Of a stretch of DNA of 64,000 bases, positions 138-48,194 are shown one piece after another. A program made the translations under genes and the position numbers. The notes beneath the pieces were generated by a model, which saw only the letters and a list, made by a program, of their open reading frames with translations, was not told where the DNA came from and ran no database searches. Position 1 is the first letter of the stretch. Every line of letters begins with the position of its first letter. Origin of the DNA: Astropecten irregularis (Eukaryota; Echinodermata; Asteroidea; Paxillosida; Astropectinidae); the NCBI GenBank assembly GCA_963971285.1, contig OZ020252.1:18265662-18329661 (forward strand), given 5' to 3'.

Positions 138-48194
<48,057 letters not shown>

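What the first reader, a model, noticed from the sequence alone, without database searches (positions are those of the whole stretch)
48153..48155. REV-ERB-like receptor appears to have lost the haem-ligating histidine
The C-terminal 25 residues align without gaps to the end of vertebrate REV-ERB (recalled, not searched): KLSDIR with KLPDLR, and S-D-x-M with S-E-x-L. The residue aligned with the haem-coordinating His of helix 11 (H602 in REV-ERB alpha, H568 in beta) is Asn342. Haem binding through this His is established for REV-ERB and E75. Its absence suggests a receptor with another ligand or none.
Basis: partly seen in the sequence, partly recalled or inferred. Interest (0 to 1): 0.75.

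Follow-up and report, generated by a model that had tools for sequence, protein, structure and literature searches.

The report
REV-ERB-like receptor without haem-binding histidine
An echinoderm gene regulator that looks like the haem-sensing clock protein REV-ERB has an asparagine where the haem-gripping histidine should be, while a second REV-ERB-like gene in the same genome keeps that histidine, so this copy may repress genes without sensing haem or nitric oxide.

Summary
Codon 48153-48155 is AAC (Asn) in the last of six exons of an intact nuclear-receptor gene, aligned without gaps to His568 of human REV-ERBbeta. The protein stops 12 residues later; no helix-12-like motif lies downstream in the window.

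Three things change the reading. (1) A second REV-ERB-like gene, C16:6.45 Mb near RAR, keeps the His and also lacks helix 12. One of two NR1D-like genes lacks the His, not the species. (2) The site is not invariant: of 12 NR1-type genes read cleanly, 9 have His and 3 do not (window Asn, two Gln). (3) Descent from REV-ERB is not settled. The DNA-binding domain says REV-ERB/E75 (75% identical to NR1D1, next 68%); the ligand-binding domain is ambiguous and the trees are unresolved.

Best explanation: a haem-blind, helix-12-less orphan repressor beside a His-bearing relative. This is inferred; haem binding was not tested. A new variant of a known kind, of moderate interest.

The parts
41707..41811 (+). 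exon part with first zinc finger of the DNA-binding domain (ATG at 41707 taken as start; the exon itself begins upstream, N-terminus uncertain)
   Evidence: Pfam zf-C4 E=8.1e-31 for the whole protein
44676..44820 (+). exon with second zinc finger, [10 protein letters not shown]...[15 protein letters not shown]...VGMSKD
45598..45809 (+). exon with C-terminal extension of DBD ([10 protein letters not shown]) and hinge/helix 1 region
46206..46451 (+). exon with LBD helices 3-5 ([18 protein letters not shown]...[21 protein letters not shown])
   Evidence: Pfam Hormone_recep E=6.8e-15 for the whole protein
47293..47434 (+). exon with LBD helices 6-8
47995..48194 (+). last exon, LBD helices 9-11 and stop; no helix 12 follows
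   Evidence: no helix-12-like motif in the + frames 48195-64000, with a pattern that finds 10 of 10 helix-12 ends of other receptors of this genome
48153..48155 (+). AAC = Asn at the position of REV-ERBbeta His568 / REV-ERBalpha His602
48271..48294 (+). two AATAAA signals (48271 and 48289), in an A-rich stretch shortly after the stop

Best explanation
The window gene encodes an intact orphan nuclear receptor of the REV-ERB/E75-like (NR1D-like) kind. Its DNA-binding domain would recognise REV-ERB-type sites. Its ligand-binding domain ends after helix 11, so it should not activate in the usual way, and it keeps part of a general corepressor groove. It lacks the helix-11 His, the Cys-Pro motif and the aromatic Phe454 contact used for haem. 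It most likely acts as a haem- and NO-insensitive repressor, alongside a His-bearing NR1D-like gene in the same genome that may keep haem sensing. Shown: gene structure, the Asn, the missing helix 12, the missing Cys-Pro, and the His in the second gene. Inferred: DNA-site choice, repression through an NCoR-family protein, no haem binding, and any competition between the two receptors.
For: Asn at the His568 column. Between the DBD extension and helix 3 the only Cys is Cys164, in a TLCQ context and not Cys-Pro. Ile at Phe454. DBD 75% identical to human NR1D1 over 83 columns, next 68% to an E78-like gene, and 80% to a recalled fly E75. LBD best PDB hit is NR1D2. Stop 12 residues after the site. 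Of 11 other NR1-type genes read cleanly to their C-terminus, 10 have a helix-12-like end and only the C16:6.45 NR1D-like gene, like the window gene, has none. That second gene keeps His. A partial match to the NCoR-family GPS2-interaction domain is in the genome (58.8 bits, positions 1-58 of 92). Groove residues F409, K421, L438 and K439 are kept.
Against: Published REV-ERBbeta H568A, C384A and double mutants kept some haem binding (PMC2652392, passages), so residual haem binding is possible. The His-bearing relative here also has no Cys-Pro in the two exons checked and Leu at Phe454, so haem sensing by it is not shown either. The trees do not place the window gene or the C16:6.45 gene: for the window, grouping with PPAR-like or E78-like genes is not rejected. 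The kept groove residues K421, L438 and K439 are common to most NR1 genes in the table, so they are not specific; R427 is Leu. No expression, binding or reporter data.
Confidence: 0.5

Rival explanations
1. A different NR1 lineage (for example from the PPAR/E78 neighbourhood, or an echinoderm-specific NR1 group) that never used haem and converged on a REV-ERB-like end; nothing was 'lost'.
For: LBD identity to NR1D2 (39%) is hardly above LXRb and PPARg (36% each). Bit scores 113.9 against 101.5 and 98.3. AU test does not reject grouping with PPAR (p=0.353) or E78-like genes (p=0.349). Two other NR1-type genes here have Gln at the site.
Against: DBD closest to NR1D1 and recalled E75. Missing helix 12 shared only with the C16:6.45 gene among the genes read cleanly. 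Grouping with NR1D plus recalled E75 is also not rejected (p=0.533); LXR, RAR and TR groupings are rejected by the AU test, though the SH test rejects only RAR.
Confidence: 0.25
2. It still binds haem, with other axial ligands (for example Cys164 before helix 3 or another His) or weakly, and senses haem or gas in an altered way.
For: REV-ERBbeta double mutant keeps some haem (PMC2652392, passages). Cys164 lies 13 residues before the helix-3 Phe.
Against: No Cys-Pro before helix 3, no helix-11 His, Phe454 to Ile; by an ungapped extension, not an alignment, Trp402 to Thr and Phe405 to Val.
Confidence: 0.15
3. Base-call error or minor allele: the true residue is His (CAC).
For: One base separates AAC from CAC; only one assembly was available.
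Against: Other haem features are missing too, the reading frame and splice signals are clean, and the exon has no near copy in the genome search.
Confidence: 0.05

Closest known systems
Human REV-ERBalpha/beta (NR1D1/NR1D2)
   Same: DBD 75% identical to NR1D1; LBD 37% (NR1D1) and 39% (NR1D2) identical; no helix 12 in either (for the human proteins recalled; the PDB chains end soon after the site)
   Different: Asn for haem His; no Cys-Pro before helix 3; Ile for Phe454
Second NR1D-like gene of the same genome (C16:6.453-6.4615 Mb, minus strand, near RAR)
   Same: no helix 12; LBD best PDB hit NR1D2; AVR-GR DBD extension
   Different: keeps His (LRILNLQHAETLLAYQS*); long hinge; DBD more diverged (63% to NR1D1 against 75%)
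Drosophila E75 (recalled sequence; its Cys, Cys and His spacing agrees with C396, C468 and H574 in PMC2652392)
   Same: DBD 80% identical
   Different: E75 has His574 and Cys396; window LBD only 27% identical to it
Amphioxus BfER, a duplicate receptor that became a competitive repressor by degenerative mutation (PMC2527136, abstract)
   Same: would be the same logic: a ligand-site-deficient relative sharing DNA sites with a competent one
   Different: steroid receptor, experimentally shown; here only inferred
Crown-of-thorns starfish NR1D1/NR1D2 (PMC11093393, passages)
   Same: a sea star annotated with two NR1D genes, both up-regulated in summer
   Different: names given by annotation; I could not read their sequences or haem sites

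Membership tests
NR1D (REV-ERB/E75) | NR1D-type DBD with C-terminal extension ([21 protein letters not shown]) | tested here: met
   NR1D1 DBD chain scores 137.9 bits; 75% identity, next 68% among 15 compared
NR1D (REV-ERB/E75) | groups with NR1D in a tree | tested here: inconclusive
   low supports; NR1D/E75, PPAR and E78 groupings all allowed, LXR/RAR/TR rejected by AU test
NR1D (REV-ERB, vertebrate type) | LBD ends after helix 11, no helix 12 | tested here: met
   stop 12 residues after the site; AATAAA signals close by; no helix-12-like motif downstream in the window
NR1D as haem receptor | helix-11 His ligand | tested here: not met
   Asn, codon AAC
NR1D as haem receptor | Cys-Pro thiolate ligand before helix 3 | tested here: not met
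   the only Cys-Pro is in the DBD extension; Cys164 is followed by Gln
NR1D as haem receptor | purified LBD binds haem | not testable with these tools
   needs protein
NR1D | represses through NCoR-family corepressor | not testable with these tools
   groove residues partly kept; a partial NCoR-family domain match is in the genome
NR1C (PPAR) | helix 12 present | tested here: not met
   no helix 12
NR1C (PPAR) | PPAR-type DBD / tree grouping | tested here: inconclusive
   DBD 63% to PPARg against 75% to NR1D1; tree grouping not rejected, p=0.353

The most novel reading that the evidence does not exclude
Sea stars or echinoderms carry a conserved pair of REV-ERB-like receptors: one haem/NO-sensing, and one 'gas-blind' relative with Asn for His that holds the same DNA sites repressed regardless of haem and NO.
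Probability: 0.2. Interest if true: 0.6.

Novelty: new variant of a known kind. Interest (0 to 1): 0.4.

Why it matters
Haem and NO sensing is described for both human REV-ERB and fly E75 (PMC2652392, passages). A natural relative without the haem ligands, beside one that keeps the His, would be a ready-made test of which REV-ERB functions need haem, and a further example (after amphioxus BfER) of a receptor duplicate turned ligand-blind repressor.

Tried and rejected
Rejected: 'the species lost the REV-ERB haem His', because a second NR1D-like gene keeps it. Rejected: 'the window is the only NR1 gene here without the His': of 12 NR1-type genes read cleanly, 3 lack it (window Asn; C15:10.62 and C16:3.96 Gln). 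Left out of that count: C10:16.98 (His in one frame, helix-12-like end in another), RAR (exon ends before the site), C16:11.04 (NR4-like, Gly at the site), the receptors I judged not NR1, and at least eight NR-type loci not read. Rejected by AU test: LXR, RAR and TR membership. Led nowhere: trees of DBD, LBD and both. Literature searches: judged by the listed titles and abstract starts, none is about loss of this His in an echinoderm; most of the papers were not opened.

No structure was predicted.

Mended: the helix-12 search used a pattern too strict to find known helix-12 ends; one search repeats it with a pattern that finds 10 of 10 known ones. In some searches one residue was added or missing at the helix 8/9 junction in seven of the genome's other receptors; one search corrects this and repeats the LBD alignment, the combined tree and the AU test, and the verdicts on the groupings tested did not change. 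The query had one residue missing and one extra at exon junctions and was not repeated.

Full report
Observation. The finding lies in the last of six exons of a nuclear-receptor gene on the + strand (41707-48194). Pfam finds a zf-C4 DNA-binding domain (E=8.1e-31) and a nuclear-receptor ligand-binding domain (E=6.8e-15). The genome is 475.7 Mb in 168 contigs; its mitochondrial COX1 reads sensibly with AAA as Asn, AGA as Ser, ATA as Ile and TGA as Trp, NCBI table 9, the echinoderm/flatworm code. The tRNA cluster just before COX1 recalls the sea-star order; that is from memory.

Alignment. phmmer of the LBD region against PDB chains gives NR1D2 (REV-ERBbeta) first at 7.6e-32 and 113.9 bits, then NR1D1 at 104.6, LXRalpha at 101.5 and PPARgamma at 98.3. 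The C-terminus aligns without gaps and places Asn on His568. MAFFT gives the same column. The NR1D1 DBD chain scores 137.9 bits. DBD identity is 75% to NR1D1 over 83 columns, then 68% to an E78-like gene, 64% to the C16:6.45 gene and to RAR, 63% to PPARgamma.

Other haem features. In REV-ERBbeta, Cys384 (in a Cys-Pro motif) and His568 hold the iron, and Trp402, Phe405 and Phe454 pack on the ring; H568A, C384A and the double mutant reduce but do not abolish haem, while H602F in REV-ERBalpha essentially does (PMC2652392; passages and one part of a section). The window protein has Ile at Phe454, and Leu where NR1D has Phe443 and Phe450. By ungapped extension only, Thr and Val stand at 402 and 405. 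The only Cys-Pro is in the DBD extension; Cys164, 13 residues before the helix-3 Phe, is followed by Gln. Of the groove residues named in that paper, F409, K421, L438 and K439 are kept, V417 and V435 are Ile, E570 is Asp, L572 is Met and R427 is Leu; F575 and K576 were not in the aligned part. K421, L438 and K439 are common to most NR1 genes in the table, so this shows only a generally sound groove.

Helix 12. The protein stops 12 residues after the Asn, and two AATAAA signals follow at 48271 and 48289. A pattern that finds 10 of 10 helix-12 ends of other receptors of this genome finds none in the + frames from the stop to the window end (21 of 200 shuffles have at least one). An exon beyond the window was not sought.

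The second gene. At C16:6.453-6.4615 Mb (minus strand) lies another NR1D-like gene: AVRFGRMSKKEKAKL extension, long hinge, LBD, and the end LRILNLQHAETLLAYQS* with His and no helix 12. In one search its LBD scores 109.8 bits with NR1D2 and 105.7 with NR1D1; the best LBD-only chain of another family among the 60 shown is PPARgamma at 76.7. It lies about 23 kb from the nearest RAR exon read, on the same strand, which recalls the vertebrate NR1D1-RARA neighbourhood (recalled). Against a simple haem story, it has no Cys-Pro in the two exons checked and Leu at Phe454. The trees do not resolve it either; grouping with NR1D plus E75 is allowed (p=0.38).

The site across this genome. I read the helix-11 position cleanly in 12 NR1-type genes: His in 9 (C16:6.45 NR1D-like, C18:8.84, C8:34.02, C8:12.18, C16:17.81, C15:10.98, TR-like C16:2.3, LXR-like C16:10.3, E78-like C15:10.53), not His in 3 (window Asn; E78-like C15:10.62 Gln; PPAR-like C16:3.96 Gln). 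Names are by resemblance. For C8:34.02 and C8:12.18 the register was set by counting from the Arg six residues before; the rest are in the MAFFT alignment. C10:16.98 has His in one frame but its helix-12-like end in another, so it is not counted. RAR's exon ends before the site. C16:11.04 looks NR4-like, has Gly there and is not counted. At least eight other NR-type loci (C8:6.24, 6.30 and 6.31, C10:25.16, two on C11, C21:10.87, C25:1.88) were not read at the site. Of the 11 genes other than the window, 10 have a helix-12-like end and the C16:6.45 gene has none.

Descent. Trees of DBD (16 sequences), LBD (16) and both (19), with PDB references, do not resolve the window gene. With a recalled Drosophila E75 added, RXR dropped and junction residues corrected, the AU test allows window with NR1D plus E75 (p=0.533), with the C16:6.45 gene (0.466), with PPAR (0.353) and with E78-like genes (0.349), and rejects LXR (0.040), RAR (0.018) and TR (0.025). 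The SH test rejects only RAR. The recalled E75 has Cys, Cys and His at the spacing of C396, C468 and H574 given in PMC2652392. The DBD and the missing helix 12 favour NR1D; the LBD alone does not decide.

Mechanism. A DBD of REV-ERB/E75 type, an LBD without an activation helix, and missing haem ligands point to a haem- and NO-insensitive repressor. A partial match to the NCoR-family GPS2-interaction domain exists in the genome, and sea urchin NCoR has two CoRNR boxes (PMC4554918, passages). Amphioxus BfER is a worked precedent for a receptor duplicate that became a competitive repressor by degenerative mutation (PMC2527136, abstract). The crown-of-thorns starfish is annotated with two NR1D genes, both raised in summer (PMC11093393, passages). 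None of this tests the window protein.

Limits. One assembly, no reads, no sister species, no structure model, no expression. Nine literature searches listed no paper that, by title and abstract start, reports this residue in an echinoderm; passages were also read in PMC7827873, PMC2774871 and PMC9939569; most other listed papers were not opened.

Noticed in passing
G000:C16:6453000-6461600 (L035, L060, L061, L062): Second NR1D-like gene, His kept, no helix 12, about 23 kb from the nearest RAR exon read, same strand.
   Followed up: yes
G000:C15:10.53 and 10.62 Mb (L033, L048, L027, L051, L063): Two E78-like receptor genes about 84 kb apart on opposite strands, one with His and one with Gln at the helix-11 position.
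   Followed up: partly
G000:C10:16.98 Mb (L053): NR-type gene whose helix-11 part and helix-12-like end lie in different frames: a frame break, an unseen intron or a pseudogene.
   Followed up: no
G000 whole genome: A recalled human RORalpha DBD finds no match above 61% identity, so a ROR orthologue was not found. A paper reports RORa for the sea star Asterias rubens (PMC9939569, passages), so it may be missing from this assembly or missed by the search.
   Followed up: no
G000:C131:32162-33484 (L068): A COX1-like open frame of 552 residues without stops under the standard code, on a contig separate from the mitochondrial one (C168); may be a bacterial contig in the assembly.
   Followed up: no
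G000:C25:9951047-9952018: COX1 fragment with 7 TGA, perhaps a nuclear copy of mitochondrial DNA.
   Followed up: no
window 25179-26015: 278-residue open frame resembling the C-terminal part of a LINE-type reverse transcriptase protein (recalled resemblance, not searched).
   Followed up: no
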